From assembly GCA_916048095.2 (NCBI GenBank), contig OU696580.1, positions 2,004,702 to 2,068,701 of the forward strand: a DNA stretch of 64,000 nucleotides, written 5' to 3'. The notes below the pieces were generated by a model. The model searched no databases. It was not told the origin of the DNA and saw only the letters and a list, made by a program, of their open reading frames with translations. Both the position numbers and the translations under genes were made by a program. The DNA is from Sacculina carcini (Eukaryota > Arthropoda > Thecostraca > Sacculinidae). Of this stretch, positions 26,503 through 58,794 are shown one piece after another; within the stretch, counting starts at the first letter, position 1; every line of letters begins with the position of its first letter.

Positions 26503-26540
<38 letters not shown>

Positions 26541-32802: not shown

Positions 32803-33270
32803 ATGGGGGAGACAGCAATCATACGACGTAACAGACCCGGCACGAAAAGATCGGCAAGTATAGGCTTAATGGGCCGAAGTGTATTCATGAATATTCACTT
32901 CTCAAGTTTTCCTTGCAATGGACTTTCTGCATTTTCAGTGACTTTTACTGTTTGGTAGAACAGCATAACGTGTCGATTGAAGATTTGTCTTCATTATGAG
33001 GGGTGCGCTTTCATATGAGCTTAAACTTTTGGTATGCTTATTTTGGAAACTTATTTTGGAAACTTTTGGTATGGTGTGCATAGTAATGTGTTTGTGAACG
33101 TACATTTCTGTGTGTGTGTATGTGTGTGTGTGCTTACATTTATGTATCTGTATGTGTGTGTCCATGTAAATGCTAACCTGTGTTTGTGCTTGTGCGTATG
33201 TGTGATTGTCTGTTTGTTTGTGTGTGTGTGTGTCTGCGCGTGATTGTGTATGTGTATGACTCTTGTGCTT

Positions 33271-33326
<56 letters not shown>

Positions 33327-35018
33327 ATCAGGAGTTTTACAGCTGGCCAGACGAGGTGTTTGAAGAGATGGACAGTACACTAGCCGTACAGCAGTACATT
33401 CAACAGCTCATCAGACGAGATCCGTACAACGTACAACTTATACTTACGGCGCCTGATCAACAGGATGAGGGCGTCTGGAAATACGAACATCTACGGTATT
33501 ATTATCATCATGTGTTTTCTCACCAACATATTGTTTACAAAATCCTCGTGACACGGACCCACACAAGCATGTGTTTTATTTCATGTCGTCCGCTTTAAAA
33601 TGAATAAATATAACATATAAAAAGTGAGTGACATCGCAACAAGATATAAATGATTAAAACAGATATATAGGCGCACTGCTAAATCAGTCGCATGAAACGT
33701 ATACGCACTACTTGAAATACATTAAACATCTTTTCTTTTATTTAGCGTGTGTGTGTCTGTGTGTGCATTAGGTTTTGCTCATTTTCTAGCGATTTTTTTC
33801 CGAAAAAATATATATTCGTGGGGGTGGAAATTAAAAATTTAGCGAAAATTGAGAAATACTTGCATATTTTCCTCAATGTAATTTGTGTTGATCAATATAT
33901 CTTCAACCATCTATGGAAAATCTCTTTGAGGTTTGCCTAACAATCTCATTTTTGTCAACATTCCACTTAAAAATATACCGTATCATTTCCATTAAACTCG
34001 TTATTATTATACACTGTGTCTGTATTTGTGTCTGTGTGTGTGTATCTGTGTGCATGTGTGTATGCTTATGTCTGTCTCTCTCTCTCTCTATCTGTGTGTA
34101 CGTCTGTGTCTGTGTGTATAGCTGTGTTTGTGTGTGTGTCTATCTGTGTGTGTATCTATCTATCTTCAATCTATTATTAATAAAGCATGTCGTATGATAT
34201 TTAATCTTCCTTCGGGCTCTCATGTTTCTTCTTCTTTACAAAAACTTAGGTTACTTCCCATTAAGGCTCTTGTTGAGTATCGTATTTGTTTAATTATTCA
34301 TTCAGCTCTTCAGCTTCGTAAGCCTGCGTATCTCTTTGACCTCCTCTCTTATAAAACCTCATCTCTTTCTCTTAGGTCTTCTAACGATCCTTTTCTACTA
34401 GTTGAACCATCCTTTCCTTCTAGGCATTCTCACTACAATCGTTGTTTCTCTATCTTAGGACCTCGTATCTACAATAGGCTATCTCCCTCAATACGCTCAA
34501 TCAAATCTCTATCTCTTTTCAAAAAACATAGTAAAAATTTCTTTCTCACTAAGTCTTATTACTGTCTTAATAATATTGTATATATTAGTACTGAATATAA
34601 GGTCTGATTGTTTCCTAATTCTGTCTTCTATGTGTATGTGCTTCATGCGTGTGTTTTCCGTTCTTGTGTCTGTATGTTTCTCCATTGTATGCTGTATGTG
34701 TGTTGTGTTGAGCTCTGTTATCTGTGTTTGTGTGTCTGTTGTGTTGTGTTCTCTGTCTATTTGTTTGAGTGTATGTCTTTGTGTGTCTGTTATGATGTGT
34801 TTTCTGGTTTGTATTTGTGTCTTCATTGTGTTGTGATTTGTCAATCTGAGTGTATGTCGCTGTATGTTTGCTGTGTTGTATGTTGTGTTGTCTTCTGTGC
34901 TGTATGTCTGCTGTACTATCTTATTCAATAAGTATGTGTGTGTGCGTGTGTATTTTTGTGTTTCGGAGTATGTAAACGTGAGTGTATGTTTGTGTTTGTG
35001 CGTATATGTACTTGTCTG

Positions 35019-35080
<62 letters not shown>

Positions 35081-35131
35081 AGGTGAGTGTGTGTGTTTTC
35101 GTGATTGTGTATGTGTATGACTCTTGTGCTT

Positions 35132-35170
<39 letters not shown>

Positions 35171-35386
35171 TGTGTGTGTATGTGTGTGTGTGTGTGAGCG
35201 CTTTTGAGACCCTCGGGTGAAGAGCGCGATATAAGTGTCTTAATGTAATGTAATGTAATGTATATGTGTCTGTGTCTGTTTGTATGTCTCTGTCTGTATC
35301 TGTGCATGTCTGTATTTGTGTGTCTCTGTGTGTATGCATTTGTGTCTGTGTGTGTGTGTGTGTATGTCTGTATATGTGTGCATGTT

Positions 35387-35454
<68 letters not shown>

Positions 35455-35793
35455 TGTATCTTTGTGTGTGTGTATGTGTGTGGGTCGGTTGATTGATTGG
35501 CTGTTTTACAGCCAATTTTGCATGGAGCTGAATGGAGTGGCCGTGCGTCTACAGGCCGAATGTCATCCGGACACTTGTACACAAATGACAGCCACAGAAC
35601 AATGGATCTTTCTCTGCGCGGCTCATCGCTCGCCCAAGGAGTGCACGGCCATTGATTACACCCGCCACACGCTAGATGGCGCTGCTTGTCTGCTCAACAG
35701 CAACAAATACTTTCCCAGTCGGTCAGTGGCCTGTGTGTGTGTGTGTGCTTGTGTGTATGCTTGTGTGTGGGTATACGTGTGTATACTTGTGTA

Positions 35794-35859
<66 letters not shown>

Positions 35860-35949
35860 TGTGTGTATGTGTACGTGTGTGTGTATACGTGTGTATTTGT
35901 GTGTGTGTGTGTGTGTGTGTGTATTTGTGTACGTGTGTATACGTGTGTA

Positions 35950-35989
<40 letters not shown>

Positions 35990-36055
35990 TGTGTGTGTAT
36001 GCTTGTGTGTGGGTATACGTGTGTATACTTGTGTATTTGTGTCTGTACGTGTGTA

Positions 36056-36088
<33 letters not shown>

Positions 36089-37380
36089 TTGTGTGTGTGT
36101 GTGTGTATGTGTGTGTGTATGTACGTGTGTGTGTGTATGTGTGTGTATACGTGTGTGTGTGTGTGTGTGTGGGTATACGTGTGTGTGTTTTTTTTTGTTT
36201 TTTTTTGTACACGTACACATGTATTTACAATCAAGTATTCATTTTATAATAATGTAAAATTAAGCACGCACAAATGCGCGCGTTGTATATGCGAGTCAGT
36301 TCGGCGACCCGGTGATGGTTGCCGCGTTGCCGCGCACGACCGCCAGGCTGACCCGCTCTCTGAGCCAGGCCGTCTCGCGCGACTCTCCCGAACGCTCTGT
36401 GATTCGACGACCGATGATCTTGATTAGGTCGTCAAATGTGGACCCCAGCACGCCGGTAGTTTCGATGGCCAGCGGTGCGAAGTCATACCGCTGGCTCAAG
36501 TCCGAGTAGCGTCGTTTCTTCGTCTCCTCGGCCGCCCGAGCCGCTGCCCCGGGAGCGACTGCACCCTCCAGCAGGTGTGCACTGCTGAAGGTGTTGGTGC
36601 ACGTCACGTCCCAGACGAGCGATTTGCCGCGCTGTGTGTATTAGTGTGTGTGTGTGTGTTTTCATGTGTGTGTATGTGTGTGTGTGTGTGTCTATGCGTG
36701 TGTATTCGTGTGTGTGTGTTATTATGTGTGTGTGTGTGTATGTTTGTTTTTGTTATCCCCCCTCAATCCCCCCTCTCATTTAAACCCGCCCATCGTGGGG
36801 ATATGTTTGAATTTTTCCACATATATTACGTGTGAGAAAAAATAGTACATATATATGTATTTTTGTGTTTGTGTATGTATTTGTGTGTGTGTGTGTGTAT
36901 GTGTGTCTTCGCGTATGTATATGTATATGCGTTTTTATTTGGGCGTGTGTTTGTGTACAAACGTTCGTGTGTATGTATATGTGTGTGGGTATGTTTGCGT
37001 ATGTATTTTGTGTGTGTATGTATGTGTGTATGTAGAGACTGGGTGTAGGACGCTATATAGATATCTAATGTGATGCAGTATAAAGTGTGTGTGTGTATGT
37101 GTTTGTTCTCACCCAGTTGTCCTTCACAGCAATGGGTTAAAGACTCGTATGTTTATTAAATAGATGAATTATTTTCTGATTTATAATCTTCTTTCGAAAT
37201 ATTCGATTTCACTGTAAACTGTATTTTTATTTATCTTTTTTAGCTCTTTTTTGTTAATAACCCGCTTGCTATTGAACCTTCTGGACAAATTTACACATTT
37301 CAAGAAATTTTATTATTTGAAATTTTTCCTGTCAGTAAAAATGAAACATGTTCTTTGTGTATGTATGTATGTATGTGTAG

Positions 37381-37430
<50 letters not shown>

Positions 37431-38195
37431 CAGTGTGAACATTCGCGATTCTTCTGTGAACAAGCTGGGCTCTGTGTGTCGTCGTGTGTATCGCATCTTC
37501 TCTCACGCCTACTTCCATCACAGACAACTGTTTGAAGAATTCGAGGTGCGCCATCGTACGTCTCTTATGTCTGTCTGTCTGTCTGGTCTGTGTGTCTTTG
37601 ATGTGTATGTATGTGTGTATGTGTCTTTGATGTGTGTGTATGTGTGTGTGTTTATGTAGCAGTGTTTTGCATTAGTTTTCTCCTCTAGAAGGATGTATAT
37701 ATTTCGTGCTTATCACTGATACACAATAACACACATACACACAGACACACACAGACATATCCACACACACATACATGCATACATACACACACACATACAC
37801 ACATGCATACATGTAATATATACATACATAAATGCAAAATTGTGTGTCTTTGTATGTGTGCGTAAATGTGGGTGTGCATGTGTTTGTGTGTGTATGTATG
37901 TGTAAGTGTGTGTGTATGTACGTACGTGTATGTATGTTTGTGTGTGCAGAGTGAGACTTATTTGTTTCGGCGATTCACAGCATTCGTGATCAAATACAAC
38001 CTAATGACCAAGGAGAACCTTAATGTTCCTATTCCCGATTACACCACCGGTGGCGGCTCTGTTTCCACCACTGACACCACCACTAACACCACTAACACCA
38101 CCAATGACACCACCGCTACTTACACCACTAATGACACCAATGAAACCACTGACACCACCTCGATTACCACTTCTGCCGGTGAATCAGATGCCTGA
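32803..38195 (+). CDS. MOB4: MOB4/phocein, MOB-family STRIPAK component
   Basis: Five exons: 32803-32853, 33332-33495, 35512-35721, 37434-37545 and 37950-38195; 260 residues. Every phase closes. Exon 1 gives the R-R-N-R-P-G-T-K start, then E-F-Y-S-W-P-D-E and [10 protein letters not shown], both diagnostic of phocein. The zinc ligands are C-x4-C in exon 3 and H-x4-H (H-A-Y-F-H-H) in exon 4. MOB4 binds striatin in the STRIPAK phosphatase-kinase complex at Golgi/vesicle membranes. Intron 1 begins GC (TCG|GCAAGT); the rest begin GT. All four acceptors lie beside (TG)n. The C-terminus holds a ~40-residue Thr/Asn-rich insertion before the conserved G-E-S-D-A end, making it ~35 residues longer than vertebrate MOB4. 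Confidence 0.95.
33238..33324 (+). repeat. LINE-tail-like leader plus (GT)n next to MOB4 exon 2
   Basis: ATTGTGTATGTGTATGACTC...TTGAG followed by ~25 GT units. The same leader precedes GT runs at 35100 and 40985, where a retroposon 3' end follows. Here the run leads straight into the exon 2 acceptor. Confidence 0.7.
34163..35260 (+). mobile_element. LINE RT C-terminal fragment with GT-rich 3' UTR, in MOB4 intron 2
   Basis: 34163-34605 encodes ~145 residues of RT C-terminal domain: [17 protein letters not shown], and [12 protein letters not shown]-rich 3' UTR with two GT arrays follows. The 3' terminus is GAGCGCTTTTGAGACCCTCG... and ends in a (TAATG)n tail at 35240-35260. A second copy of this terminus is at 41044-41107. 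The catalytic domain is missing. Confidence 0.75.
35397..35450. repeat. (TA)n microsatellite
   Basis: An uninterrupted run of about 26 TA units between GT-rich stretches in MOB4 intron 2, about 60 bp upstream of exon 3. Confidence 0.9.
35735..36190. repeat. Long compound (GT)n array in MOB4 intron 3
   Basis: About 450 bp of GT with interspersed GTAT, GTATAC and GTATTTGT variants in a higher-order pattern (TGTATACGTGTGTAT recurs). It starts just after the exon 3 donor. Confidence 0.9.
36298..36636 (-). pseudogene. Retroelement pol C-terminal fragment in MOB4 intron 3
   Basis: A ~110-codon minus-strand frame in a GC-rich island reads [10 protein letters not shown], then an [13 protein letters not shown] segment, A-I-E-T-x-G-V, and R-G-N-A-A-T-I-x-G. 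I know this arrangement from the C-terminal part of reverse-transcriptase proteins in many invertebrate genomes, but cannot name the clade. It is embedded between GT arrays, antisense to MOB4, and has no catalytic domain, so it is treated as a relic. Confidence 0.5.
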
Positions 38196-39025
38196 ATGAT
38201 GGTGTATGATGATGATCGTGGTCTCATCATAGAATATGATCTTTGTTTTAGTTTTTTTCGCAAAATATCTGCATGTTTTTTCAGCCTTTGTCCACATATT
38301 TGTGTCGTATACTCACAACGCTCAAGTGTTGGTGTTTGTGGTGTGGTTTATTTATAATGTCTTTATTTGTGTTGTTAATTTGTCATTTTTTTAGATTATT
38401 CAACAATACACATGATGGACGGATGTTGAATTTTAATTTTCATAATCAACATGAAAATGTTGTGTTTTCTAGGATTTCATTAAGCTAAATAGATTTGTTT
38501 TTGTTTTTTTGAAAGCATTAAATTATATTTAGAGTATTTACTCGCTGTCTTCAAATTTGGCACGAAAGCTACGTGACTAATACATAACAAACGCATGTTT
38601 CACGTTTGCCTGCGCTGTGTACTTACCGATTTTTTTATAATTGGTAAAGTAAAGTGTTTATATTAGAGTGATTGATACAATTTCAATAAATTCAGGCTTA
38701 GAATAGCATTTGAGAATAAGCTTGGCATCAAACAACTTATATACTTATACAGCAAATAATATACCGTAGATAAAAAATAATTTAGTAGAGTATATCGTAA
38801 ATTGTTTTTCACCTTCATGTATTACAAAATATTCGAGGAATGTTTAGTTAAATTATTCGGCGGTGTATATTTTAATAATAATCACGATTATCTCGTAATG
38901 AACGATGTTATTCGTCGATATTCTCTGTTGAATTTCAGCCTTTAAGTACATACTGCTGGCCAGCTAAAGTGGTGGTCAGTTTCAGTTTAATTATAGCCTG
39001 TGGAGACCCAATACTCACCGCGGAC
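38196..39025. other. Spacer between MOB4 and MRPL23
   Basis: AT-rich. It would hold the MOB4 3' UTR and MRPL23 promoter. No repeat is recognised. Confidence 0.4.
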
Positions 39026-40536
39026 ATGTCTTCCCGTCTCTACCCGCTGCACCAACGAGGCAACCCGCAGCTGCGCGTCTTTCTCAGTAACTTCTGGATG
39101 AAAATGCTTCCGCCCAAGGGTCCATCTCCTCCCAACCTGGTGCGATTCATAGTGTCGCCGCAAATGACACGCTACGATGTGCACCAGTATCTGGCCAAGA
39201 TCTACAACGTGAACGCGCTCAGCGTGTCGGTTACCGAGTGTATTGGTGAGTTGTGCTTGAAACGTCTCATTTTCTTGTGGACTGCGTGGTGTAGTGGTTA
39301 GCACACCCGCCTCACAAGCGGGAGAACCGTGGTTCAAATCCGGCCAAGGAGAATTTCTGGGGCGAATTATATAATTCAACAGCCCCTGTCCACCCAGCAG
39401 TAAATGGTACCAGATATCAGTCATGTGTTGTGTCATGCATTCTGGGGAGGTGGCCCTCTCTGATACGTCTTCCGTCCTTGTGGCGCCATAGCGTGGAGAG
39501 GGTCGGTTCTGCGATGGCAGCGAGCTGCACGGGACACACCTGTGTGTGTTCATAAGCTTCGACTTCTTCCCGTGTAGCAGCTATCACTTAAAGAGCCCTT
39601 TATCCTTTAACAGCGTATCACAGAGATGGTATTCGTCCCTCAAATGCGCTTCTTAATGAACCAACTCTTCGCTTTCCACAACGGCGCTGACAAATCCAAT
39701 AAATTAAGCTGCTGCACCAAAAATTCAAATTAAATACCAGGAAGTCACCTGAAACGAAATTAATCCCTTTCACTTTATCAAATAAACTGTGTGTTTGTAA
39801 ATTTGAGCTTGTATGTGTATGTATGTTCTTACTAGTTGTTCTTACTAGTTGTATTCGCAGGAATGAGTCAGAGGCTCGTGACTCCCGCCTTCCAGTTGTC
39901 ATATGTCTTCTTAAACAGTTGTGTCGTTGGCTGGTGTACTACGTCGCTTGATAATCTATTCCATCTATCTACTACTCTATTTGGGAAACTATATTTTTGG
40001 ATGTCCTTTTTAATCCTGCGTTTCTGTAGGCCAAAACTGTGATTCCTATTAGATGTGTGTGTTTGTTTGTGTATATATGTATATGTTTGTATGTATATGC
40101 ATATGTTTGTATATATATATATATATGTATATGTTTGTGTGTATATATGTATGTGTGTGTGTGTGCATGTCAGGGCGGTTTCGTCGAGTGCGCTCCAAAG
40201 GCTACATTGTCAAAGACGATCACTACAAAGTCGCACACGTCACACTGGTCGGTTATTGTACACTGGTGTCTATTGTATCGATGTGTGTGTGTGTGTCTGT
40301 ATATGTGTATGTATATGTGTGTGTATCTGTGTGTGTGTGTGTGTGTGTGTCTATATATGTGTATGTATCTGTGTGTGTGTGTGTGTGTCTATATATGTGT
40401 ATGTATCTGTGTGTGTGTGTCTATATATGTGTATGTATCTGTGTGTGTATATGTGTATGTATCTGTGTGTGTATATATGTGTATGTGTATGTATCTGTGT
40501 GTGTGTGTGCATGTGTGTCAGTGTGTCAATGTTTAT

Positions 40537-40568
<32 letters not shown>

Positions 40569-41294
40569 CTATGTGCCCGTAATATGTATATTGTATATCT
40601 ATCTATCTATCTATAGTATATCTATCTATATCTATATTGTATATCTATCTATATCGTAATCTGTATATGTGTATGTATATGTGTGTGTATCTGTGTGTGT
40701 GTGTGTGTGTGTCTATATATGTGTATGTATCTGTGTGTGTGTGTGTGTGTCTATATATGTGTATGTATCTGTGTGTGTGTGTCTATATATGTGTATGTAT
40801 CTGTGTGTGTATATGTGTATGTATCTGTGTGTGTATGTATCTGTGTGTGTGTGTGTCCGTGTGCATGTGTGTCAGTGTGTCAATGTTTATGTGTGTGTGT
40901 GTGTGTGTGTGTGTCTATGTGCCCGTATATATGTATATGTATGTGCGTGTGGGAGTGTATTTTTGTGTTTGTGTGTGTGTGTGTGTGCGATTGTGTATGT
41001 GTATGACTCTTGTGCTTGAGTGTGTGTGTGTGTGTGCATGTGTGTGAGCGCTTTTGAGACCCTCGGGTGAAAAGCGCGATATAAATGTCTTAATGTAATG
41101 TAATGTGTTTGTGTGTGTGTGTGTGTGTCCTTTAGCCTTCAGACCAAACTTTTGAGTATCCCGATTTGTTGGCTAGCAAGACATCAGATCGTCAGAGCGA
41201 AGAGATGAAAGAAATCGACAATATCCGTCGTAATTACAGCGAACAGCAGAGCAGGCACACCGAACGTCCCGGCGTTCCTTCGTGGTTTCAATAA
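39026..41294 (+). CDS. MRPL23: Mitochondrial ribosomal protein L23 (uL23m)
   Basis: Three exons: 39026-39245, 40174-40247 and 41136-41294; 150 residues, against ~153 in vertebrates. uL23m sits at the polypeptide exit tunnel of the mitoribosome. The start M-S-S-R-L-Y-P-L is followed by P-Q-L-R-V-F, M-T-R-x-D-V and I-Y-N-V. Exon 2 encodes the basic R-V-R-S-K-G and D-x-Y-K-V-A-H-V strand. Exon 3 gives F-E-Y-P-D-L and the terminal G-V-P-S-W-F signature. Donors are G|GTGAGT and CTG|GTCGGT. Both acceptors follow (TG)n. A SINE and a LINE relic lie in intron 1, and a second retroposon terminus in intron 2. No clear cleavable presequence is visible. Confidence 0.93.
39279..39611 (+). mobile_element. 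tRNA-Val-derived SINE in MRPL23 intron 1
   Basis: The head is tRNA-like: A box TGGTGTAGTGG, anticodon loop with CAC (valine), B box GGTTCAAATCC. It is followed by a ~250-bp body shared with copies at 45768, 58271 and 61883. The body includes CAGCAGTAAATG and AGCTGCACGGGACACACC. It ends near TTTAAC. The acceptor stem is not conserved, so it is not a functional tRNA gene. Confidence 0.85.
39869..40047 (-). mobile_element. Short CR1-like LINE C-terminal relic
   Basis: The minus strand reads ~55 residues to a stop: K-R-R-I-K-K-D, Y-S-F-P-N-R-V-V-D-R-W-N-R-L, then L-F-K-K-T-Y-D-N-W. This resembles the last segment of CR1-type RTs. It is related to, but clearly diverged from, the fragment at 13.4-14.0 kb. 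Confidence 0.6.
40297..40930. repeat. ~350-bp duplication of T/G-rich sequence, MRPL23 intron 2
   Basis: The block GTATATGTGTATGTATATG...CTATGTGCCCGT occurs at about 40297-40580 and again at about 40661-40925. A (TATC)n stretch separates the two. Both are GT-rich microsatellite mosaics. Confidence 0.75.
40985..41107 (+). mobile_element. Retroposon 3' terminus (LINE tail), MRPL23 intron 2
   Basis: The leader ATTGTGTATGTGTATGACTC, a GT run, then GAGCGCTTTTGAGACCCTCG... and a (TAATG)n tail, matching 35100-35260. It lies ~30 bp upstream of the exon 3 acceptor, separated from it only by a GT run. Confidence 0.75.
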
Positions 41295-42335: not shown

Positions 42336-42504
42336 CTACATGCCAGTGTAGGCGGGTCCGCCGCCGGCCTCCGGAGTGACCCAGTTGATATTCTGACTTG
42401 GATCTTTGATGTCGCATGTCTTACAATGGATACAGTTTTGGGCGTTGATTTGTAAGCGTTTGACATCATCATTGTCTTCCGTACCAACATACTCATACAC
42501 TCCT

Positions 42505-42569
<65 letters not shown>

Positions 42570-45188
42570 CAACGCGCTACATACAATACGCGAAAACGTT
42601 AGATAAAACGTATACGCGTTAGATAACATACATATATAACACATACACTATTTGCACCGCACAAAATACATTATAATTCTTGGATTCTACTTTGTTGTCG
42701 GTTGAGTTCGATGAAGACGCTTGTGTTGTAGCATAAAGATATTGTGTAAATAAATGACGACATAAATAAATGAGATATGATATGTCAGGTTTTCTGTTTG
42801 CTACCGATTTTGCTGCTCGAAAAAATGCAGAGAATATAGACAGTTATCAAAGTCCTCGAATGAACAGAGTCATCAACGGAGAACGTTTGGAAGACATTGA
42901 AGATATTCAGAGAAACGACCGCATCATTTAAAGCCATAATTCCATAAGGAGTTCCACAATGACTTTCAACAGCGTAAAAAAAACGTCTGGGTAAGTCTAT
43001 TGCTTCAAATGGATAATACTTTGAAAGTGAATTACACTATGAACATGTAGCAATTACTCGATAAAATTCTATGGCATAATTCCGGAGATGTCTTCAGGAG
43101 ATGTTTCTATACCTTTTACAATTTCATTTGTCCCAACTGAAATCAGATTTGTCCCAAATGAAATGACCAGTATTCAATTAGAATATCAAATTATATTTGT
43201 TCGTCAATTATTTGTATTGTTAGAATGTTAGCAGAATCAGAAGCCTATTGAATTGTAAATTGCTAATTATATGGGAACGCGAAATTACCGAATAACCCGT
43301 ATTCAAATGCCCACTCACACACACTCTCTCTCTCACACACACAAACACACACACACACACACACACACTAAACTATAACACTTACCGAATAGATAGTACC
43401 ACAATTGCCCACAATAATACAATTCCAGATTAACCGCCAAAATGAAACTATCCAGCAAAATGCTATTCATCAAGGATTAGAATTTTCTCTATAACGATTA
43501 TTGAAATTTTCTCGATCTAACGATAGAAATTTTCTCTATAACGATATGTGTAGCGTTCTACAGTACGCGCAAATATACACATTTTTATGGACATAATTAA
43601 TTAAATAAGTGATAGGCAAAGTTCTTTCCCTAATTGTCTGCTTTTTTGTTGAATTTATTTACATTCATATTCCATTCACAATCGTGAAAAATCCTACTTT
43701 TTGGCCGAGAATTCTGATAGTTTGAGCGGTCTGTCATACCATTTCTCTGATTCGCCACTTCTTAATACGAACCAACTCTTCATTTTCCACACACACACAC
43801 ATACACACACACACACGGCAGCGTTGATAAACGCAATCAATTCCGTTGTTCAACCAGATTGACTGTCAGCAAATCGCAAGAAACAAAAACACAAAAATCG
43901 GACTGATTTTCTAGAAAACAGTGACAGAGTGAGAAGGGTGAATCAGAGAACAGTGAAAGAGAAATAAAAGTGAGAAGAGAGACTGAGTCAGAGAAAAACA
44001 AGAGATAAAGACAAGAATCAGAGAGTGTCAGAGAAAGAGAGGGAGAATAGTAAGAGAGACAAGAGTGAGTTAGAGAGCCAGAGGAAGAGAGAGTAAGAGA
44101 GAGTAAGAGAGAATGTGACAGAGAAAAGCAAAGGAGAGAGAGAGGGAAGAATCAGAGAGCGACAGAAGAAGACCGAAGACAGAGAAAAAGAGCACGGGAA
44201 GAGTAAAAGACGAGCAGAGAAAGAGAAAGAGAGAGAGCAATGAATAATGACACCTGCGGGACAAAAGCGACTCTCAGGTGCGTCGTAAATGGCGAGATTG
44301 TGCGCCACAGGAACTGAATCGTCCAGTAGTGTGAGATGAGCCGGTTGATCCGACTCATGATTCGTGCCTGACACACGCACATACAAACACATACATACAT
44401 ACATACATACCTACAAACACAGAGATGTTAACAGACATACGCACATACACAGAGATATTAACAAGCAGACAGACGGATATACAAATGTATGACTGTATGT
44501 ATGTGTGTGTGTGTGTGTTGGCGTGTATATATAAGTGTATGTCTGTATGTGAATGTGTATGTATGTGCGTGTATGCGTGTGTTTATGTGTGTATATGTAC
44601 ATGTAATTTGACATTGGTGTAGCCTGGAAGAATCTTCTCATTGAGACAAACGAATTGAAATAGCAAAATTGCAAAACGCGCAATAAATAGCAAATAGCAG
44701 TATATAAACATAATCAAATACATAATAATATAGTATAGTAATATAATATATAAATATAGTATAATAAATAATATATAAATATAGTATAATAAATAGCAAA
44801 TAGCAAATAGAATTGCAAATAGCAAAATTGCAAAACGGCAAAGCAGTTTAATCTCGTTTGTCTGAATGAATGTTATTTACTGAATCACATATTTATTGTT
44901 GATTGTTATTATTTATTGAGGAACGTGGGCGGAGTGACATTATGGATTGTTATCGGATGATGGTTTATTATTTATTGTTATTTATTTATTATTTTCTTTC
45001 CAACTCTCTTTCTAGACTTTTTTCTCTTCGAACTCTCTTTCTCTCTGAATCTTTTGGGCGCTTCCGGTACATGGGGCCACCTTAGGGTGGTAATAGTGCT
45101 TGCACTCTTCCCATGCTACTGGATTTGCCTGTAATTAATAATAATAATAATAATGAGAATCATAAATACTTGTTTGCCTGTGTGTGTA

Positions 45189-45219
<31 letters not shown>

Positions 45220-47032
45220 ATGTCACCAACACTGACACACCTGTGAGAGCTACCGAAGAAAGCAGATCAAAGCTGAGTTGATTGTCAGGTCGTGGATATT
45301 CAATGACAGAACATTGAGACGCCGGTAGAAGAGCGGCATGATCGGCCCCTAACATAATAATAATAATAATAAATATATTAATCACCAACACCAACAAAAA
45401 AAATCACCAAATGCTTCCATCAACTCCTCATAATAAAGAAGTTCACTAAAAGTGGTCAAGAAGAAATAGCCTTCTGTAGAATTTGTTGATATAAGCATTA
45501 TTGCAAAGAGATTGCATAGTGATTGATTGCACCCAAAATTAATTAAGCCCCTCAAAAAATTGCACGCTGGATCCGTCACTGATCACCAATTATTATGAAT
45601 ATAATCATAGGAATAATCACGATATTAATTATACGTCACAATCACGGTGATTGTTAGCACAACAATAACAACAAAATACTGTCCAATCACCCGTTCATCA
45701 ACCATTTCCATTAGTTTCCACTGCATATTCATACTGTATATCCTTCAAATTGGATTCAAAGTGTTGCACTCCGTGGTGTAGTGGTTAGCACACCCGCCTC
45801 ACAAGCGGGATGTCCGTGGTTCAAATCCCGGCGGAGGAGAATTTCGTCGGGCGAATTATATAATCCAACACTCCCTGTCCATCCAGCAGTAAATGATGGT
45901 ACCAGATATCAGTCATGTGTTGTGTCATGCATTCTGGGGAGGTGGCCCTCTCTAATACGTCTTGCGTCCTTGTGGCGCCATAGCGTGGAGAGGGTCGGTT
46001 CTGCGGTGGCAGCGAGCTGCACGGGACACACCTGTGTGTGTTCATAAGCTTCGGCTTCTTCCCGTGTAGCAGCTGTCACTTGAGGCCATTAACTTTTTAA
46101 CTGTGAATGTATCATTGTCTGAGTGTCACCTGGATGCTTGAAGGTCCACGGTTCGAGACCCCTGCCTAGCGCGTAAAACAGACCAGTGTACATCAGACCG
46201 CCATAGAGACCTAGTCGGGTGTGAAACGAGGGACGCACATTACGCGCTGCGTACAATTCCCGCCACACCCATGACTCTCTCAGTCTTTCCTCGTAGCTGA
46301 CAGGTTCAATAGCTGACACACACAAACACACACACACACACACATAAATATGTATTTGTTATAGAGTGTGCCTGTATAAGACAAGCACGATAAACGAAAA
46401 CTAAAAAAATGTTAATTAAGCATAAAGTGAAAGGATAAGAGAGAAATAAAAAAATATGTATAAAACAAGAACAATAGCAAATAATAATAAACTGCGCAAA
46501 AATAGCGCAAATTGGATGAAACAAATGATGATGAAATAATGAATGAAAGGATGAAATAACTTCAATTGCTGGCTATAGCTGTCCTATGCCTGTTGATTTT
46601 CGTTTTTAGCGCCTGTGAATGAATTCGACGCTAAGCCTATTGGGTCATTCCATGTTAGTTCAGCCACTGATTTTAACCCGACTCAGATTTTGTTCTTTTT
46701 CGGTAGGCTTATAGACATCACTGAGTTGAGTAAAAATATAGAATTTTACTACTCTAGGTCGCACAGTTCCCGAGATATGACACCGTAAAATTTGACCTCG
46801 AATGTCTTTTCAGCAAAAATTGTCGGTGGTAAGCAGTGAATATCTCAGCTGTTTGACCACCTAGAGACACCATTCAAATACCACTTTAAAGCTGTTGAAT
46901 GGCTCTATAACATAGCTGAGGTAATTTTGTCTCTGCAGGGTAAAATAAAAAAGGCCATCTAAATGTGACCTTTGACCTCGCAGGAAAAAAATAGTATACT
47001 CCGATTTTTTTTTTAAGAATGTATATTGTAGG

Positions 47033-47080
<48 letters not shown>

Positions 47081-50000: not shown

Positions 50001-53000
50001 CAAGATTGAAAATATCAAAGTTATTGTGCTCAATGTGATTATGGGAGGTACTGGGTTGAAAACCACTGCTGTATCCCATGCAAACACTTACGTTTAGCTC
50101 CGTCGGCATTTTGCACGGCCTCGTACACACTCTCGGCCGCTAGCATTGCGCTCTTCATGGCTGTGTGCGTGCCCTTAATCTTGGGCACATTCATGAAGCC
50201 GGCCGCACAGCCGACCAAACAACCGCCGGCGAATGAGAGACGCGGCACACACTGCAGCCCGCCCTCGTTCAGCGCCCGAGCTCCGTAGGCAATACGGCTG
50301 CCCCCGCGAAGCGTGGCCGCAATACTGTTGTGGTGTTTGAAGCGTTGAAACTCGCGGAACGGGTTCATATAGGGGTTGGAGTAGTCCAGAGCGACTACAA
50401 AGCCGACAGCTACCGTCGGCACGCCGCTCGGCTCGTTGAGGTGATAGAGAAACGAGCCACCGTATGTGCTGCGATCCTAGCCACACCAGGTGAATCCCAC
50501 AAGAATGGTGCAAAAATATCAATAGTTGCATATATACCATACGAATATGTGGATGTAGTCGTATAGAAAAACTGAAATTAGTGTGTCTTAGTTCAATCAG
50601 AATTAGTAAATTTTTGTTTCCAGTGATATTTAATTTGGTTGTACAGTTGAATTTATATAATTTATCAGCGTTGTTGTGTGGAAAATGAAGAGATGGCTCG
50701 TATTAAGAAGTGGCGAATCAGTAAGAGAAAAAGTTACAGATTAACAGTTCAAGAATAGAAAACTTTCGCCTATCTAGGAAATTTTCGCCCGTCGCTCGAA
50801 TCAGCCAAGCTATATCATAAGCAGATACACAAGAGGAACACCGCTCAAATGACCTACCAAGGGCCAGCCGACCGTGTGTTCCACTCTTCCTGCGTGATGC
50901 TGTTCGGCCGGGATCTCCCAGACCTCCTTGAGACCGATGGCGTACGTCTGCGGCTGGCAGTGGTCGCGCAGGTTGAACTGTCTCATCAGCTGCTTGGACA
51001 GATGGCCGTGACAACCCTCTGCCAGGATTGTACACTTGGCTCGCAGCTCCATGCCGCGCTCAAAACTGGCCTATCGCGGCGCCCACACACACACACACAC
51101 ACACATACACATACACAGATATAAGCGGTGCATCACGTCTTGGTGTGTGATAAATTGTAAATGTGTGCGCTAATAAATTTAGCTGGAACTGAGAACTTAG
51201 TAAGCTAGAAATAAACCGTGATATATACCTAAGATAAAAAGATCAGAGATAGTATTCTGGAATTAACAGAATTAGCTTCGATATAAATTAGTACAAATTC
51301 GAAAAAGTAGCCTGAGAATGACTTCATTATAATAGGTTCATTGGATTTTTGTGTGCTGATAAAATAGTCCAGCAACAACCAAACTGAAACAAGAGAGTAG
51401 AAATTGTCAGTAAATGACTTTGACAGAGCAATAAAATAAGCATATTCATTTGCATATTGGACGAAAGTAGGCACACGCAGTCGCCCAAATCCATCAAAAA
51501 CACGCCCAAATCAAAACCACGAAACCACGCCGAAAAATATACCGAAACCACGCTCGAATCGGCCAGACACACCCTCATCGACAAAAACCACGCCCATAAC
51601 AGAAATCACGCCCACATTGGCCGAAACCACGCCCATAACAACAGAAACCACGCCCATAACAACAGAAACCACGCCCATAACAACAAAAACCACGCCCATA
51701 ACAATAGAAACCACGCCCATAACAACAGAAATCACGCCCATAACAACAGAAACCACGCCCATAACAACAGAAACCACGCCCATAAAATAGAAACCACGCC
51801 CATAAAATAGAAACCACGCCCATAACAACAGAAACCACGCCCATAACAACAGAAACCACTCCCATAACAACAGAAACCACGCCCATAAAAATAGAAACCA
51901 CGCCCATAACAACAGAAACCACGCCCATAACAACAGAAACCACGCCCATAACAACAGAAACCACGCCCATAACAATACAAACCACGCCCTAAGTGAAGTG
52001 AAACCATGCCCTAAAAGTTAGCGGATATCCTAGACAACAAGCTGCTTATTCACCTTGGGACTGCCGTCTTTGGCCACGCCCACATCGCCCGAGGCCACAC
52101 CCACCACGGCGGCCCCGTGTTGTGTGTCTTCGATGATTAATTCGGCGGCCGGCGTGGATGGGTAGACATCAACGCCCAGCGCTTCGGCTTGTTCGGCAAG
52201 CCATCGGACCAGCTCGCCCAGACGCACAACCTGATTTCCGTGGTTGCTCATTGGATAAACTGTTGACACACACACACACACACACACAGACAGACAGACA
52301 TACACTCACACACACATACGTGAAAGTGTGAATGGAAACGTTTGGTGTGAAGCGAAATTTGCCATAAAATCAAAAGCACAAAAAACAAATATTAATGATA
52401 CAACAAAAAACTGTTTAAAATGCTGCTTATATAGTGAGCTTTTTGTGTGTTATTTTAGCAAGTATGAAATTATTGTGTATAAGAATAATTATTTGCGGAG
52501 TAAAATTAAACAAATCACATATGAGTGCATATTAAAAATAGATGCGAGAAAAAAAGCCTTTGATATAAAAGGCAAAATTGTAAAACTGCTAAATGAGAAA
52601 TTATTGTTGACAAAATATACGTCTTAAATTTTATGTCTTACATCCAGACACACATATACATACATACATGCAAACAAAATATGTATATTTACATACAAAC
52701 ACAGGGTCGAATGTTCGGGAAACACAATTATAATTAAACAAATATAAATAAAAAGCGACACAATTCATGCGAGTACAAAAGCGAGTGATGGAAATGAAAA
52801 TAAATACAGAAAACCCTAGAAAAAATACGAAATTGCATATGAATAGTTAATAAATTAAGAATATAGCAAGGAAAAACAGCAAAGAAGGTATATAAAAAGA
52901 AAACAGGTGACAACTTGAACATACTCAAATTCAATGAGAACAAAACACAAAATAACACACATGCCAGAAGAGAACTTATATAAATATATTTATACTGACG

Positions 53001-54132
53001 TATATTTGCCCGACTAACCATCCCTTTATTTTATAAATAATTTTTGTGTTTATTTATCTGTAATTATCCACTTTTGTTTTTGATTTATCACAAATTGCAA
53101 TGAGTATTTTTTGTTATATTTTTTGTACTTTTTTCTCCTAGTTGTATGAATTGAAATCGCCCATTATTACACCCCGAAAATGTGTGTTTTGTCTTTTTTC
53201 TCATCATTATTATTAATATTATTTTCCAACTTCGTCTACTGATATATTTATTCGGCAAAAAAGAGGCCCAATCTTACAAGACAGAATTGGTATAGGAAGA
53301 CGGGCGTTTTCCGTCAGAAAGGCGAATTTGTCGTCGGTGACTGGAGTACGTAATGGACACCCGCTGTCCTTCTCACGCCAACCAGGTAGCAACTCATCCA
53401 GTGGTCGCGTGTCCAAACATGCACCCGATAAGGTGTGGCCACCTGACACCCCCCCACACACACACACACACATACATACACGCCCAGACACACATGTACA
53501 AACTTACAAACCCAAACACGCACAAGCACACACACATACATATACATTCAAGCACACACAGAGACACGCACACACACACACGAAACACACACATATATAC
53601 ACACAAAACACACGCATGCACACACATACATAGACGCTCTAACATACAAACACACACATACACACCTTAGCACACATACAAATACAAACACACACACACA
53701 CACACACACAAGCACACAGACACACACAAATACAAGATAACACACACACACACACACACACATAAACACACAGAAAAACACACATACACACACACAAATA
53801 CACACAAATACACACAGAAACACGCATACAAATCCACATACACACACACACACACAAGAAAACACACGAACACACACGAACACAACATAGAAACACACAA
53901 GAAAACACACTCACACACACACACACAAACATACAAATACACATAGACACAGAGACGCACCCATTTCAGGCGCTTTCTCGAGTACGGTGACTGAAAGGTC
54001 TGTGTTGTTCTGCTGTGCCAGCTGTTTGAGTCTGATAGCCGCCGCCAAGCCGGCAGGTCCTCCGCCCACTATCAACACGTCTGTTTCATCTCCCACCCGC
54101 TCCATATCAATGTCTGATACACACACATACAC

Positions 54133-54204
<72 letters not shown>

Positions 54205-55569: not shown

Positions 55570-55611
<42 letters not shown>

Positions 55612-57133
55612 ACCTACAAACACAGCACACATTCATACACAACTCTTCACGGTTTCAGTTCCGGTGTCCACTTGACTCCAGAACGTCAGCAAGAGGAACC
55701 AATATCAGCTGAACAAGAACCAACCAAGATCCCGTGGTACCCATCACATTAGCCAATTCCCAGCATCCATGAAAAGTCGCGAATTCGCAGAAAAATTTGG
55801 TCTGCCCAACTATGGATTACTAGGTAGATAAGTGAAATTTAACAAAATTATACATGCTTAAATAATTGCACGCTTAAATCAACAAAATTGTTATAATTAA
55901 AATAATTCTCAATATAGACAATAATTTACAAATACCATTTTCTAGCTAACGCATGTTAAAAGTTCAAGTATAAGTAAAAAAAGAACTCTTGAAAAAACCT
56001 GCTAAATTGTCTTTCACTTCAACTGTGTTTTCAAACTTTCATACTACAGCAGCATTTTGGAAATAATTTTCCTTTCTTCAACGTTTAGCCTGACGCTGTG
56101 TGTTCAACAGGTTATGTGTGCAAGAAAAACATATATTTTCAAAACATCATCTGCAAAAACGTGTATACATTTTTCCTAGGACACCCCTGTACAAAACGCA
56201 AACACAAACATTGGCTTAAAAACCGAGCAAAAACATCACCGCGTTCCAACGCTAGGAACACAACTAACATCCGCCTAATACACCAAACAACATAAATAAA
56301 GCAAACAAACTTCAGAAAGCGAAAATATTCCTCTGGATTTTTTGCATTGAACTTTTACCTCAATGAACGCATTGATGCGAGCTATACTTTTCGTGTATGT
56401 GTGTGTGTGTGTGTGTATGTGTGTATGTGAGTGTGTGTGTGTGTGTGTTCAGTGCTGAGATTGAAACACTCTTACTGACACACTTGACTATATACATAAT
56501 ATACAAACATTTTTTGTCATTGCAAACCTGGAAATCACCAGAAACATTTACAAACACACACACATACAAACACATACGCATACAAACACATAGGACTAGC
56601 GTACATTTCCTAATATAATGACCAGCGGACACACATGAATTTACCCAAATATATAAATACATATTTCGATCTGGATATGCAGATATGATATTAAGGCATA
56701 ATAAATAGTTGAATTCCAATTTTTCATTACAAATTCAACCCTTCTTAACTCGTATATAGAGTTATATACATAAAACTGCGATCACATCATTAATCGCAAT
56801 TGAAAAAAAAACATAAAAACACTGATTATATAAATTCCCGACACTAGGAGCGAATTGAAATAACCAATTTTAATTAATTGCATCTGTGTGTATGTGTGTG
56901 TGTATGTGTATGTGTGTGTATCAGTGTGTGTGTGTGTTGAGGTTAATTTAAACGTGGTTAATTTGCACTACAAGAAAAACAATGTGTGATATTCTTTCTC
57001 TCAATACACGCACACACACACATACACACAAAGACACATACACAAATACATACTCAAACAAACAAACACACACACATATACGCATGTGTGGTCACAATTG
57101 TAATCAGTCGAGAGAAAAAAACAAAATAAAAGA

Positions 57134-57171
<38 letters not shown>

Positions 57172-57981
57172 TACACTGTCAAATCACGTTGAATAGGTTT
57201 GGGCAATGGCGGCGCCAGGCTTTTTCCCGCGGGGGGCTAGCGAAAACAGATGCGGAGCTGCACGGGACACACCTGTGTGTGTGTTCATAAGCTTCGGCTT
57301 CTTCCCGTGTAGCAGCTGTCACTTGAGCAGCCTTTAACCTTTTTAGCTCCAAGCCCCCCCCCCCTTGGTGCCGCCACTGGACAGGGGTAAACACTGATTG
57401 TGTTACCTCAAATGCAATTTCTTTATACGACTTCAAAGTCGTTTGATTACTGCTGTGAACAAGCTATCATCATCCAACGATAGCACAGCAGCAAATAAGA
57501 TTTACAATCAAGACTTTTTGAATTTAAGTCAAAACAAAATTTGTCAAACGTAAGCAAAACTTGGGGAAAATATTATTTGGGGTTTGAAGAAAAAAATCCC
57601 TTTTGTAAATATCGTAGTTATAATTGAATTTTATCATTATTATTATAAGTTTCAGGCAGATGCGAATTCACTTGTGAAAACACCCCAATATAGAAGGCTG
57701 AAATAAATTAAAAAAACATTGGAATTTGTATGTACAATAATAAAAAAATCTTAGTTAAAATCAACTACAATTAAAATATTTAGACAGTTACCAACCAGAA
57801 AAATAATACATCATAAAAAAAATCCAATAAATAACTGCATTGGCTGCAATGCAAGAGGTCATTCACCTTTCCAGCGCGGGTCATTGCCCCGCGGCACGAC
57901 CGAATAATGTGTGGTGATTCGAGGCTGTACATTTGTGGCGCAGCTGCGACATTGCTGACTCACACCGCCAACCACTGTCAC

Positions 57982-58029
<48 letters not shown>

Positions 58030-58794
58030 AAGAAATGTGATGGTGTTAATGACATACAATAGGAATGGAAGAGTTGGATAGAACAGCGACGTTTCCACAT
58101 AGAAGAGGAAGCGAGAATGCTTGAAATGTTCCGCATAGAATAATTGAGAACAATCATCAAGTAGTCTAGTACGAACGAAATGTATAGGGAATAATGTATA
58201 AATAAATAGCAGCGATAACTTTCCGAGCGCACATCATCAGGCGTTGCGTTAACTGCATTTCGAGAGTATGTGGACTCAGTGGTGTAGTGGTAGCACACCC
58301 GCCTCACAAGCGGGAGATCGGCGGTTCAAAACTCGACGGAGGATAATTTCTATGGGTGATTTCTATAATCCAACAGTCCCTGTCCACCCAGCAGTAAATG
58401 ATGGTACCAGATATTAGTCATGTGTTGTGTCATGTATTCTGGGGAGGTGGCCCTCTCTAATACGTCTTCCGTCCTTGTGACGTCATAGCGTGGAGAGGGT
58501 CGGTTCTGCGGTGGCAGCGAGCTGCACGGGACACACCTGTGTGTGTTCATAAGCTTCGACTTCTTCCCGTGTAGCAGCTGTCACTTGAGACCTTCAGCCT
58601 TTAACCTAGGTATCGGCAGATAGACATCGGATATTATTTCTTGAGAAACAGAGAGAGAGAGAAAGAGATAAGGAGAAAAAGAAAAAGGAGAGAGGGAGAG
58701 AATCAAACAGCAGGCCAGTAGAATTACCGTAGTTTGTCAGCGATGCGAGACGAGTATAAATGCGAGCAGACATGGATGTACGCTGACACCACAT
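42336..58794 (-). CDS. ETFDH: Electron transfer flavoprotein-ubiquinone oxidoreductase
   Basis: Eleven exons: 58794-58728, 57974-57867, 54113-53961, 53442-53278, 52259-52054, 51070-50858, 50476-50092, 46312-46130, 45348-45241, 44367-44254 and 42502-42336. All phases close to 622 residues (human 617). The enzyme passes electrons from ETF to ubiquinone in the mitochondrial inner membrane. Exon 1 encodes an Arg/Ser-rich, acid-free targeting peptide. Exon 3 has the FAD-binding G-G-G-P-A-G-L. H-T-L-S-G-A and E-G-C-H-G-H-L follow. The 4Fe-4S ligands are F-C-P-A-G and C-I-H-C-K-T-C-D near the C-terminus, and the end is G-G-G-P-A-Y-T-G-M. Eight of ten acceptors adjoin (TG)n on the sense strand. Exon 1 is the least certain, as it rests on phase, length and composition. 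Confidence 0.95.
42508..42568. repeat. (CA)n array abutting ETFDH last-exon acceptor
   Basis: About 30 CA units on the + strand, i.e. (TG)n on the transcript, ending 3-4 nt before the AG of the exon 11 acceptor. Confidence 0.9.
43915..44245. repeat. Purine-rich (GA)n stretch in the last ETFDH intron
   Basis: About 330 bp of almost pure A/G on the + strand (GAGAGA, AGAGAGTAAGAG blocks), so pyrimidine-rich in the transcript. It begins within ~10 nt of the exon 10 donor. Such homopurine DNA can form triplex structures. Confidence 0.8.
44885..45150 (+). repeat. Uninterrupted copy of the repeat that hosts the LTR element
   Basis: Matches the reverse complement of 20308-20545 and continues past GCTACTGGATTTGCCTGTAA into (AAT)n. 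The same sequence lies beyond the LTR element at 15925-15969. It sits in ETFDH intron 9. Confidence 0.75.
45768..46100 (+). mobile_element. tRNA-Val-derived SINE in ETFDH intron 8
   Basis: Intact A box (TGGTGTAGTGG), CAC anticodon loop and B box (GGTTCAAATCC), with the full family body. It lies antisense to ETFDH and ends only ~30 nt from the exon 8 donor at 46130. Confidence 0.85.
47035..47080. repeat. (TA)n microsatellite in ETFDH intron 7
   Basis: About 20 TA units. The surrounding intron (46313-50091) otherwise shows only AT-rich sequence, an open minus frame at 47812-48132 without recognisable domains, and CA runs near 48415 and 48545. Confidence 0.85.
51585..52010. repeat. Minisatellite, ~20 units of ~21 bp, ETFDH intron 5
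   Basis: The consensus unit AACCACGCCCATAACAACAG is repeated about 20 times with few changes (two shortened units near 51785 and 51805, one CACTCCC variant). Degenerate CACGCCC-containing units continue to ~51475. Each unit contains CCACGCCC, a GC-box-like core (GGGCGTGG on the other strand). The spacing is uniform and there are no spacers, so it is not a CRISPR array. Confidence 0.9.
53454..53945. repeat. Long compound (CA)n tract in ETFDH intron 3
   Basis: Nearly the whole 518-bp intron is CA/CACATA-type sequence on the + strand, i.e. UG-rich in the transcript, between the exon 3 donor (53960) and the exon 4 acceptor (53443). Confidence 0.9.
54133..54200. repeat. (TA)n microsatellite upstream of ETFDH exon 3
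   Basis: About 32 TA units followed by CA-rich sequence, within ~25-90 nt of the exon 3 acceptor. Confidence 0.9.
55202..55359. mobile_element. hAT-like MITE
   Basis: Ends CAGTGGCGACG and, inverted, CAGGGGCGTCG; 158 bp with no coding capacity. Flanking 8-bp duplications are not evident, so the call rests on the terminal inverted repeats. Confidence 0.4.
57204..57379. mobile_element. hAT-like MITE containing a SINE fragment
   Basis: Inverted ends CAATGGCGGCGCCA and CAGTGGCGGCACCA flank a 3' piece of the tRNA-Val SINE body (57250-57345). No clear target duplication is visible. Confidence 0.45.
57250..57345 (+). mobile_element. Partial tRNA-Val SINE (3' body only)
   Basis: Shares GAGCTGCACGGGACACACC through GTAGCAGCTGTCACTTGAG with the four longer copies. 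The tRNA-like head is missing. Confidence 0.75.
57983..58027. repeat. (CA)n array at the ETFDH exon 2 acceptor
   Basis: About 22 CA units on +; the transcript therefore reads (UG)n, then UUGUGACAG at the 3' splice site. Confidence 0.9.
58271..58608 (+). mobile_element. tRNA-Val-derived SINE in ETFDH intron 1
   Basis: A full-length family member with one base missing in the D-loop-like segment (GTGGTAGCAC) and a diverged B box region. It lies antisense to ETFDH. Confidence 0.85.

What the first reader, a model, noticed from the sequence alone, without database searches (positions are those of the whole stretch)
33260..58030. (UG)n repeats sit at almost every 3' splice site, on both strands
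Of 17 introns whose acceptors I could place by phase and homology, 14 have (TG)n runs on the sense strand within ~55 nt of the AG: MOB4 4 of 4, MRPL23 2 of 2, ETFDH 8 of 10. Often the run ends only 3-8 nt before the AG (33331, 37433, 42503, 53443, 57975). The RPP25L acceptor is T/G-rich without a clean repeat. Normal metazoan acceptors use polypyrimidine tracts bound by U2AF. UG repeats are bound by TDP-43 and CELF proteins and can impair splicing, as at human CFTR exon 9. A genome using UG microsatellites as its ordinary 3' splice-site context would be unusual and may imply an altered U2AF or a UG-binding co-factor. Sequence pattern seen directly; mechanism is inference.
Basis: partly seen in the sequence, partly recalled or inferred. 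Interest (0 to 1): 0.88.

Follow-up and report, generated by a model that had tools for sequence, protein, structure and literature searches.

The report
UG tracts mark 3' splice sites
In the genes examined of this barnacle-like animal, introns usually end in a run of alternating T and G instead of the pyrimidine-rich stretch that most animals use, which suggests that its splicing machinery has learned to read a different signal.

Summary
I placed 73 acceptors in nine conserved genes on six contigs: 57 of 73 have (TG)≥4 on the sense strand within 60 nt of the exon, 2 of 73 have (CA)≥4; outside the window 44 of 57. In 62 introns of ≥260 nt, 49 show it, against 12.9 expected in random interior windows and 21 at most in 5000 draws. 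The tract sits where the polypyrimidine tract should be: T+G ≥75% at 56 of 73, T+C ≥75% at 1 of 73. Genome-wide, (TG)6N4CAG occurs 4475 times, its mirror 1960. AC runs follow strong 5' splice sites (183 versus 15), as in zebrafish, but within introns AC-donor and TG-acceptor tend to exclude each other (P=0.009), so an AC:GU duplex is not the general rule. U2AF2 is duplicated; both copies have His at an RRM2 site that is Asn in 146 of 147 listed homologues. PUF60 has two loci, TDP-43 three. Best reading: a UG tract has taken over the Py-tract role, probably read by changed U2AF2 and/or PUF60. No RNA data; mechanism inferred.

The parts
33272..33331 (+). acceptor tract before MOB4 exon 33332-33495; long (TG)n ending 'ttaatcag'
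   Evidence: TG>=4. Preceded at 33258 by the left part of a repeat family that carries an internal TG run
35452..35511 (+). acceptor tract before MOB4 exon 35512-35721
37374..37433 (+). acceptor tract before MOB4 exon 37434-37545; (TG)n ending 'tatcag'
37890..37949 (+). acceptor tract before MOB4 exon 37950-38195
40114..40173 (+). acceptor tract before MRPL23 exon 40174-40247
41076..41135 (+). acceptor tract before MRPL23 exon 41136-41294; lies just downstream of the 3' end of a SINE-like repeat
57975..58034 (-). acceptor tract before ETFDH exon 57974-57867
54114..54173 (-). acceptor tract before ETFDH exon 54113-53961 (TA repeat then TG run)
53443..53502 (-). acceptor tract before ETFDH exon 53442-53278; TG run, then a G run, then tgtcag
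52260..52319 (-). acceptor tract before ETFDH exon 52259-52054
51071..51130 (-). acceptor tract before ETFDH exon 51070-50858
50477..50536 (-). ETFDH acceptor WITHOUT a TG run (exon 50476-50092)
   Evidence: listed as noTG
46313..46372 (-). acceptor tract before ETFDH exon 46312-46130
45349..45408 (-). ETFDH acceptor WITHOUT a TG run (exon 45348-45241; ATT repeat)
   Evidence: noTG
44368..44427 (-). ETFDH acceptor with a broken TG run, 3 units at most (exon 44367-44254)
   Evidence: noTG at >=4 units
42503..42562 (-). acceptor tract before ETFDH last exon 42502-42336; (TG)n up to 'tcag'
45179..45223 (-). AC run (sense) near the donor of the ETFDH intron that follows exon 45348-45241; example of the second, 5'-side signal
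   Evidence: repeat coordinates, sequence; class counted

Best explanation
In this genome the U2-type 3' splice site consists of a branch region, a UG-rich tract of roughly 10-50 nt (often a (UG)n microsatellite) and YAG. The UG tract has taken the place and job of the polypyrimidine tract. It lies within the AG-free stretch before the acceptor and is probably bound by the duplicated, diverged U2AF2 and/or by PUF60, which hand the site to SF3B1/U2 snRNP through their UHM domains. Shown: position, strand, frequency, base composition, AG exclusion, whole-genome excess, and that the factors exist in several copies. Inferred: that the tract is needed for splicing and which protein binds it.
For: 57 of 73 acceptors TG>=4 within 60 nt versus 2 of 73 CA>=4 (discordant 57:2, binomial P 6e-15); 49 of 62 introns versus interior null mean 12.9, max 21 of 5000. 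By gene: ETFDH 7/10, MOB4 4/4, MRPL23 2/2, SPTB 20/28, CCT5 6/7, CCT4 7/7, CCT2 5/7, CCT3 4/5, CCT7 2/3. Among the 57, the last run ends a median 11 nt before the exon, 47 of 57 within 20 nt. T+G>=0.75 in 56 of 73 at -30..-6 versus 20.6% of interior windows; T+C>=0.75 in 1 of 73. Median AG-free stretch 65 nt (63 in 44 acceptors versus 24 at random positions). Whole genome: (TG)6N4CAG 4475 versus mirror 1960, while (TG)6N4GAC is 1644 versus mirror 1985. Two U2AF2 genes, 73% identical, no third match above cut-off among 31. His at the RRM2 Asn site in both copies and in P0004; Asn in the other 146 of the 147 homologues listed by two capped searches. PUF60 prefers GU-rich over U-rich ligands in assays cited in PMC6093180 (passages); two loci here.
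Against: No transcript was aligned; all borders come from reading frame, homology and an ab initio model. 16 of 73 acceptors have no TG>=4, and these are only 63% T+G. (AC)6N4CAG is also in excess, 3036 versus mirror 1944, so part of the pattern excess is not TG-specific. Introns carry more sense TG than CA even in their interiors (null means 12.9 versus 5.6 of 62). Residues of U2AF2 that contact RNA according to PMC4786784 (Q147, K225, R227, K260, F304, V254) are unchanged in both copies, so U2AF2 specificity may be ordinary. No clear branch-point motif emerged.
Confidence: 0.66

Rival explanations
1. RNA structure: (AC)n after the 5' splice site pairs with (GU)n before the 3' splice site, bringing the ends together and sparing U2AF2, as described for zebrafish.
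For: AC runs are enriched just inside donors: 14 introns versus interior null mean 5.6, max 12 of 5000; whole genome AGGTRAGTN6ACACACAC 183 versus mirror 15, while the TG version is 8 versus 16.
Against: Only 7 of 65 introns have both. Introns with an AC donor have a TG acceptor in 7 of 14, those without in 44 of 51 (Fisher P 0.0075; within-gene permutation P 0.0087). Counting AC anywhere upstream in the intron gives the same sign but weaker: 19 of 29 versus 32 of 36 at >=4 units (P 0.03), P 0.07 at >=6 and 0.18 at >=8 units.
Confidence: 0.12
2. Neutral by-product: a genome full of TG microsatellites, some spread by a repeat family with an internal TG run, whose introns are TG-biased by transcription-linked mutation; acceptors merely tolerate them.
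For: Genome is rich in TG runs. A repeat with an internal TG run has 603 exact seeds; its left part lies before 3 of 73 acceptors, its right end before 2 of 73. Interior sense TG exceeds CA.
Against: The excess peaks in the last 50 nt (TG/GT density 0.64 at -30..-20 against 0.19-0.25 at -150..-60, 41 introns), is almost all one strand (57:2), and is absent at donors (TG 16 of 65, interior rate 12.9 of 62). The Py tract itself is missing.
Confidence: 0.1
3. The runs are regulatory sites for TDP-43 or CELF proteins (repression or alternative splicing) added to ordinary acceptors.
For: TDP-43 N-domain at three loci, two of them head to head. TDP-43 represses UG-flanked cryptic exons in mammals (passages of PMC5446763). 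CELF was not searched for.
Against: The tracts flank exons needed for conserved reading frames (TRiC subunits, ETF-QO, spectrin), and no separate Py tract (T+C >=0.75) is present in 72 of 73.
Confidence: 0.12

Closest known systems
Zebrafish/teleost (AC)n...(GT)n introns spliced without U2AF2 (Lin et al. 2016, Genome Res 26:12-23; paper not held; seen through passages in PMC6093180, PMC9198270, PMC9508853)
   Same: sense (GT)n before the 3' splice site and, in some introns, sense (AC)n after the 5' splice site
   Different: about 10% of introns there versus 57 of 73 acceptors here; AC and GT said to pair there, negatively associated here
PUF60-activated exons with UG-rich Py-tract segments (GANAB exon 6; passages of PMC6093180)
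   Same: UG-rich segment between branch point and AG, needed for correct 3' splice-site choice
   Different: single regulated human exons with a UC-rich part beside the UG part; here UG is the usual context and UC is nearly absent
Canonical metazoan U2-type 3' splice site
   Same: GT donor, YAG acceptor, AG exclusion zone, U2AF2 present
   Different: no pyrimidine tract; T and G in its place
TDP-43-repressed UG-flanked exons (CFTR exon 9, cryptic exons; passages of PMC5446763)
   Same: UG runs next to acceptors
   Different: there UG hampers exon use; here it accompanies exons needed for conserved frames
Tunicate non-GT/AG splicing with divergent U2AF (PMC13326754, abstract start in a search listing only)
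   Same: an animal lineage with genome-wide change of a splice signal and changed U2AF
   Different: there the terminal dinucleotides changed; here they are normal and the tract changed

Membership tests
Canonical U2-type metazoan 3' splice site | YAG at the intron end | tested here: met
   71 of 73 (C 51, T 20, A 1, G 1); AG itself was required when borders were placed
Canonical U2-type metazoan 3' splice site | polypyrimidine tract upstream of AG | tested here: not met
   T+C >=0.75 at -30..-6 in 1 of 73; T+G >=0.75 in 56 of 73
Canonical U2-type metazoan 3' splice site | AG exclusion zone | tested here: met
   median 65 nt in 73 acceptors; 63 versus 24 at random positions in 44
Canonical U2-type metazoan 3' splice site | recognisable branch-point motif | tested here: inconclusive
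   no branch-like 5-mer stood out at -120..-20
Teleost AC/GT structured, U2AF2-independent introns | (GT)n before the 3' splice site | tested here: met
   57 of 73
Teleost AC/GT structured, U2AF2-independent introns | (AC)n after the 5' splice site | tested here: met
   in a minority: 14 of 65 introns, null mean 5.6 of 62; 183 versus 15 genome-wide
Teleost AC/GT structured, U2AF2-independent introns | both in the same intron | tested here: not met
   7 of 65, negative association, P 0.0087 within genes
Teleost AC/GT structured, U2AF2-independent introns | splicing without U2AF2 | not testable with these tools
   needs depletion or in vitro splicing
TDP-43-repressed UG exons | exon is skipped or cryptic unless TDP-43 is lost | not testable with these tools
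   no RNA data; the exons belong to conserved frames, which speaks against it
PUF60-dependent UG-rich Py tract | PUF60 gene with RRM1-RRM2 and a C-terminal UHM region | tested here: met
   C31 locus 501 bits over the TIGR01645 cut-off, matching positions 29-400 and 508-606; the C16 locus matches 28-410 only. That 508-606 is the UHM is recalled
PUF60-dependent UG-rich Py tract | dependence on PUF60 | not testable with these tools
   needs knock-down or CLIP

The most novel reading that the evidence does not exclude
An animal lineage has rewritten its 3' splice-site code: the polypyrimidine tract has been replaced genome-wide by a UG tract, together with duplication and change of the tract readers (U2AF2 with a His at a site that is Asn in nearly all listed relatives and, in copy A, an Asp-Gln substitution in the fifth-nucleotide linker site that could accept G; two PUF60 loci). 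AC tracts at 5' splice sites act as an alternative signal, so that an intron tends to be marked at one end or the other.
Probability: 0.33. Interest if true: 0.87.

Novelty: new variant of a known kind. Interest (0 to 1): 0.74.

Why it matters
The Py tract and its reader U2AF2 are treated as near-universal in animals. A lineage in which most acceptors use UG instead makes testable how a core splice signal and its reader can be exchanged in step, and whether UG-binding proteins that hamper splicing in vertebrates (TDP-43) can coexist with a UG-based acceptor code. It also gives gene predictors a reason to fail here.

Tried and rejected
Chaetognath origin (257-Mb genome, 9 chromosome scaffolds; passages of PMC12460157) was considered for the unnamed 264-Mb genome and rejected. 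The first named hit of U2AF2 copy A is Amphibalanus amphitrite, the first two of ETFDH are Amphibalanus and Pollicipes, and a tree of the RRM region (29 of 149 sequences chosen by me) puts both U2AF2 copies in one clade with the Amphibalanus protein, support 0.998. Against this, copy B by itself has a fly as first named hit (66%), with Amphibalanus (68%) about 20th in the list. Rhizocephalan is only my guess.

A SINE-borne origin of most tracts was tested and is minor (3 of 73 left parts, 2 of 73 right ends). AC:GU pairing as the general mechanism was tested and not supported. Asn268/Asn289 (human numbering) as RNA contacts is recalled; the paper I could search (PMC4786784; finds, and section 8) did not mention them, nor did a find in PMC7261175. 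The linker residues T252/V254, K225, R227, K260, F304 and Q147 are from PMC4786784.

What entered the count of 73 and what did not. The gene finder was first trained on the window genes. In its first run it gave all ten ETFDH exons (nine exact, the last four bases short at its stop), but only one of four MOB4 exons exactly and none of the three MRPL23 exons exactly. Its site model sees only -3..+1, but its noncoding content model does see TG, at both exon ends alike. SPTB acceptors (28) are ab initio; the alignment of SPTB_a to 8iah_M could be read from residue 28 to 917 and has no gap at the borders there, the rest was cut off, and SPTB_b/c were not aligned. Three CCT4 acceptors were moved 12-37 nt upstream by hand and one CCT4 exon was added, guided by recalled human CCT4; the result aligns without a gap at these borders, but a stretch of about 33 residues in its last exon does not align and could hide an intron. 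One move (2922 to 2910) turns a no-run into a run at >=4 units. Seven predicted exons in CCT5, CCT4 and CCT2 were dropped as spurious, and gap-free alignments of CCT5 and CCT2 bear that out; this removed some acceptors without TG runs. CCT3 (its first acceptor placed by hand) and the three CCT7 acceptors were placed with recalled human sequences and not aligned. Also dropped: two CCT7 acceptors that I could not place, five spurious or unsure SPTB-region exons, the four low-complexity SPTB end exons, two SPTB acceptors at segment starts, predicted exons of arginase-, VPS28- and kinase-like genes (names by eye), of the RRM loci, and CCT genes that were not fetched.

The claim that a genome-wide UG acceptor code is not in print rests on ten searches of one open-licence library, of which aimed at other questions; subscription papers are mostly missing there, Lin et al. 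2016 among them.
Full report
Setting. The window lies at C15:2,004,702-2,068,701 of an unnamed 264.4-Mb genome in 43 contigs. U2AF2 copy A and ETFDH have barnacles as their nearest named relatives (Amphibalanus 73% for U2AF2; Amphibalanus and Pollicipes 71% for ETFDH), so this is most likely a thecostracan crustacean, distant from the sequenced barnacles. U2AF2 copy B alone would not say so: its first named hit is a fly at 66%, but in a tree both copies group with the Amphibalanus protein (support 0.998).

The observation. ETFDH, MOB4 and MRPL23 were rebuilt with exact borders and checked by homology. 14 of 16 acceptors have (TG)>=3 within 55 nt, 13 of 16 have (TG)>=4 within 60 nt.

Beyond the window. 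I fetched 200 kb of C2 and parts of five TRiC/CCT genes on C8, C15, C16, C18 and C36 (located, fetched). A gene finder was trained on window genes. Its acceptor model sees only positions -3 to +1; its noncoding content model does see TG, but equally at both exon ends, so a difference between acceptors and donors cannot come from it. On its own training genes it gave all ten ETFDH exons but did poorly on MOB4 and MRPL23, so I relied on homology wherever I could. It found a beta-spectrin gene whose first 1205 residues align to the PDB beta-spectrin 8iah_M over 1178 residues; the readable part, to residue 917, has no gap at the borders. CCT5 and CCT2 align to PDB epsilon and beta chains without a gap over 504 of 507 and 476 of 476 residues, CCT4 without a gap at the borders. 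Together this gives 73 acceptors and 65 complete introns in nine genes. What was moved by hand or dropped is listed under Tried and rejected.

Result. 57 of 73 acceptors carry (TG)>=4 in the last 60 nt, 43 of 73 (TG)>=6; (CA)>=4 occurs in 2 of 73. Without the window genes it is 44 of 57 and 2 of 57. In 65 introns the donor side has TG in 16 and CA in 14, the middle 14 and 9. In the 62 introns of >=260 nt, 49 acceptors against a mean of 12.9 and a maximum of 21 in 5000 draws of interior windows. Positions -32 to -6 of the 57 are T 46%, G 40%, C 7%, A 7%; the other 16 are T 39%, G 24%, C 17%, A 20%. A pyrimidine tract is almost absent: T+C >=75% in 1 of 73, T+G >=75% in 56 of 73. The AG-free stretch is long (median 65 nt). 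So the tract lies where a Py tract would lie.

Whole genome, without gene models. (TG)10AG 4905 against mirror 3645. (TG)6N4CAG 4475 against 1960. (TG)6N4GAC 1644 against 1985. Against a pure strand reading, (AC)6N4CAG is also raised, 3036 against 1944. At strong donors, AGGTRAGTN6ACACACAC 183 against 15 and the TG form 8 against 16.

Relation of the two signals. The layout, AC after the donor and GT before the acceptor, resembles zebrafish introns in which the two are said to pair (passages of PMC6093180, PMC9198270, PMC9508853). Here they avoid each other: TG acceptor in 7 of 14 introns with an AC donor, in 44 of 51 without (P 0.0075; within genes P 0.0087). With AC counted anywhere in the intron the effect weakens (P 0.03 to 0.18 by run length). 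The sample of 14 is small. If it holds, the two look like alternative marks and not like the two arms of a helix.

Candidate readers. U2AF2: two genes head to head on C26, each one open coding frame, 73% identical, their UHM parts identical, which suggests gene conversion. Both have His where 146 of 147 listed homologues have Asn in RRM2; the one other His is P0004, a sequence from an unnamed source that groups with copy A at 0.982. The 147 come from two searches that list only their best 120. Copy A and P0004 also have Asp-Gln in place of Thr-Val in the linker stretch that contacts the fifth nucleotide (role of the stretch from PMC4786784). An Asp could pair with a guanine edge; that is speculation. 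Copy B has changes at two aromatic positions of RRM1 (Y152F, F197Y; that these are RNP positions is recalled). PUF60: a gene on C31 in one 616-aa frame and a second locus on C16 matching only the RRM part; PUF60 is reported to prefer GU-rich to U-rich ligands (PMC6093180). TDP-43: three N-domain loci, two of them head to head. None of this shows binding.

Verdict. It is the usual acceptor context in the genes sampled, it sits at the Py-tract position and replaces the Py tract. The mechanism remains inferred; I favour U2AF2 and/or PUF60 reading UG. The kind (UG tracts that serve acceptors) is known from zebrafish and single human exons; its use as the ordinary acceptor context is, as far as ten searches of an open-licence library show, not described.

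Noticed in passing
L029 (C26:1035393-1036658 +) and L030 (C26:1032223-1033476 -): Two U2AF2 genes head to head, each one open coding frame, 73% identical overall but identical over the C-terminal UHM part; looks like gene conversion between inverted copies.
   Followed up: partly
C29:895365-895583 (-); C26:5886003-5886227 (-) and 5886773-5886991 (+), L047: TDP-43 N-terminal domain at three loci, two of them a diverged head-to-head pair.
   Followed up: partly
C31:185168-186685 (-), in L032; C16:7533077-7534285 (-): Two PUF60-like loci; the first is one frame without introns, the second lies in a 1685-codon open frame and no C-terminal match was listed there.
   Followed up: partly
window 33258, 35119, 41005 (+); tails at 35198 and 41048: Repeat family with an internal TG run between a conserved left part and a tail GCGCTTTTGAGACCCTCGGGTGAA...; 603 exact seeds of the left part in the genome. 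It may spread TG runs.
   Followed up: partly
window 39286-39344, 45767-45839 (+), 62150-62210 (-): tRNA-like matches inside what looks like repeated sequence, probably a tRNA-derived SINE.
   Followed up: no
window 22192-23220 and 27181-28551; 25071-26505 and 30437-31353: 342-bp and about 450-bp satellite arrays, each present twice in the window, as if a block of about 5 kb had been duplicated.
   Followed up: no
window 51581-51989: 21-bp minisatellite, about 20 copies, inside an ETFDH intron.
   Followed up: no
window 9140-10327 (+) and 11258-12601 (-): Neighbouring single-frame genes: a queuine tRNA-ribosyltransferase (Pfam TGT) and a HAD hydrolase.
   Followed up: partly
window 16372-19239 (-): Open frame with reverse-transcriptase and integrase matches: a retrotransposon.
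   Followed up: no
window 1-8000: Strong strand skew: GC skew -0.35 to -0.45, unlike most of the rest of the window.
   Followed up: no
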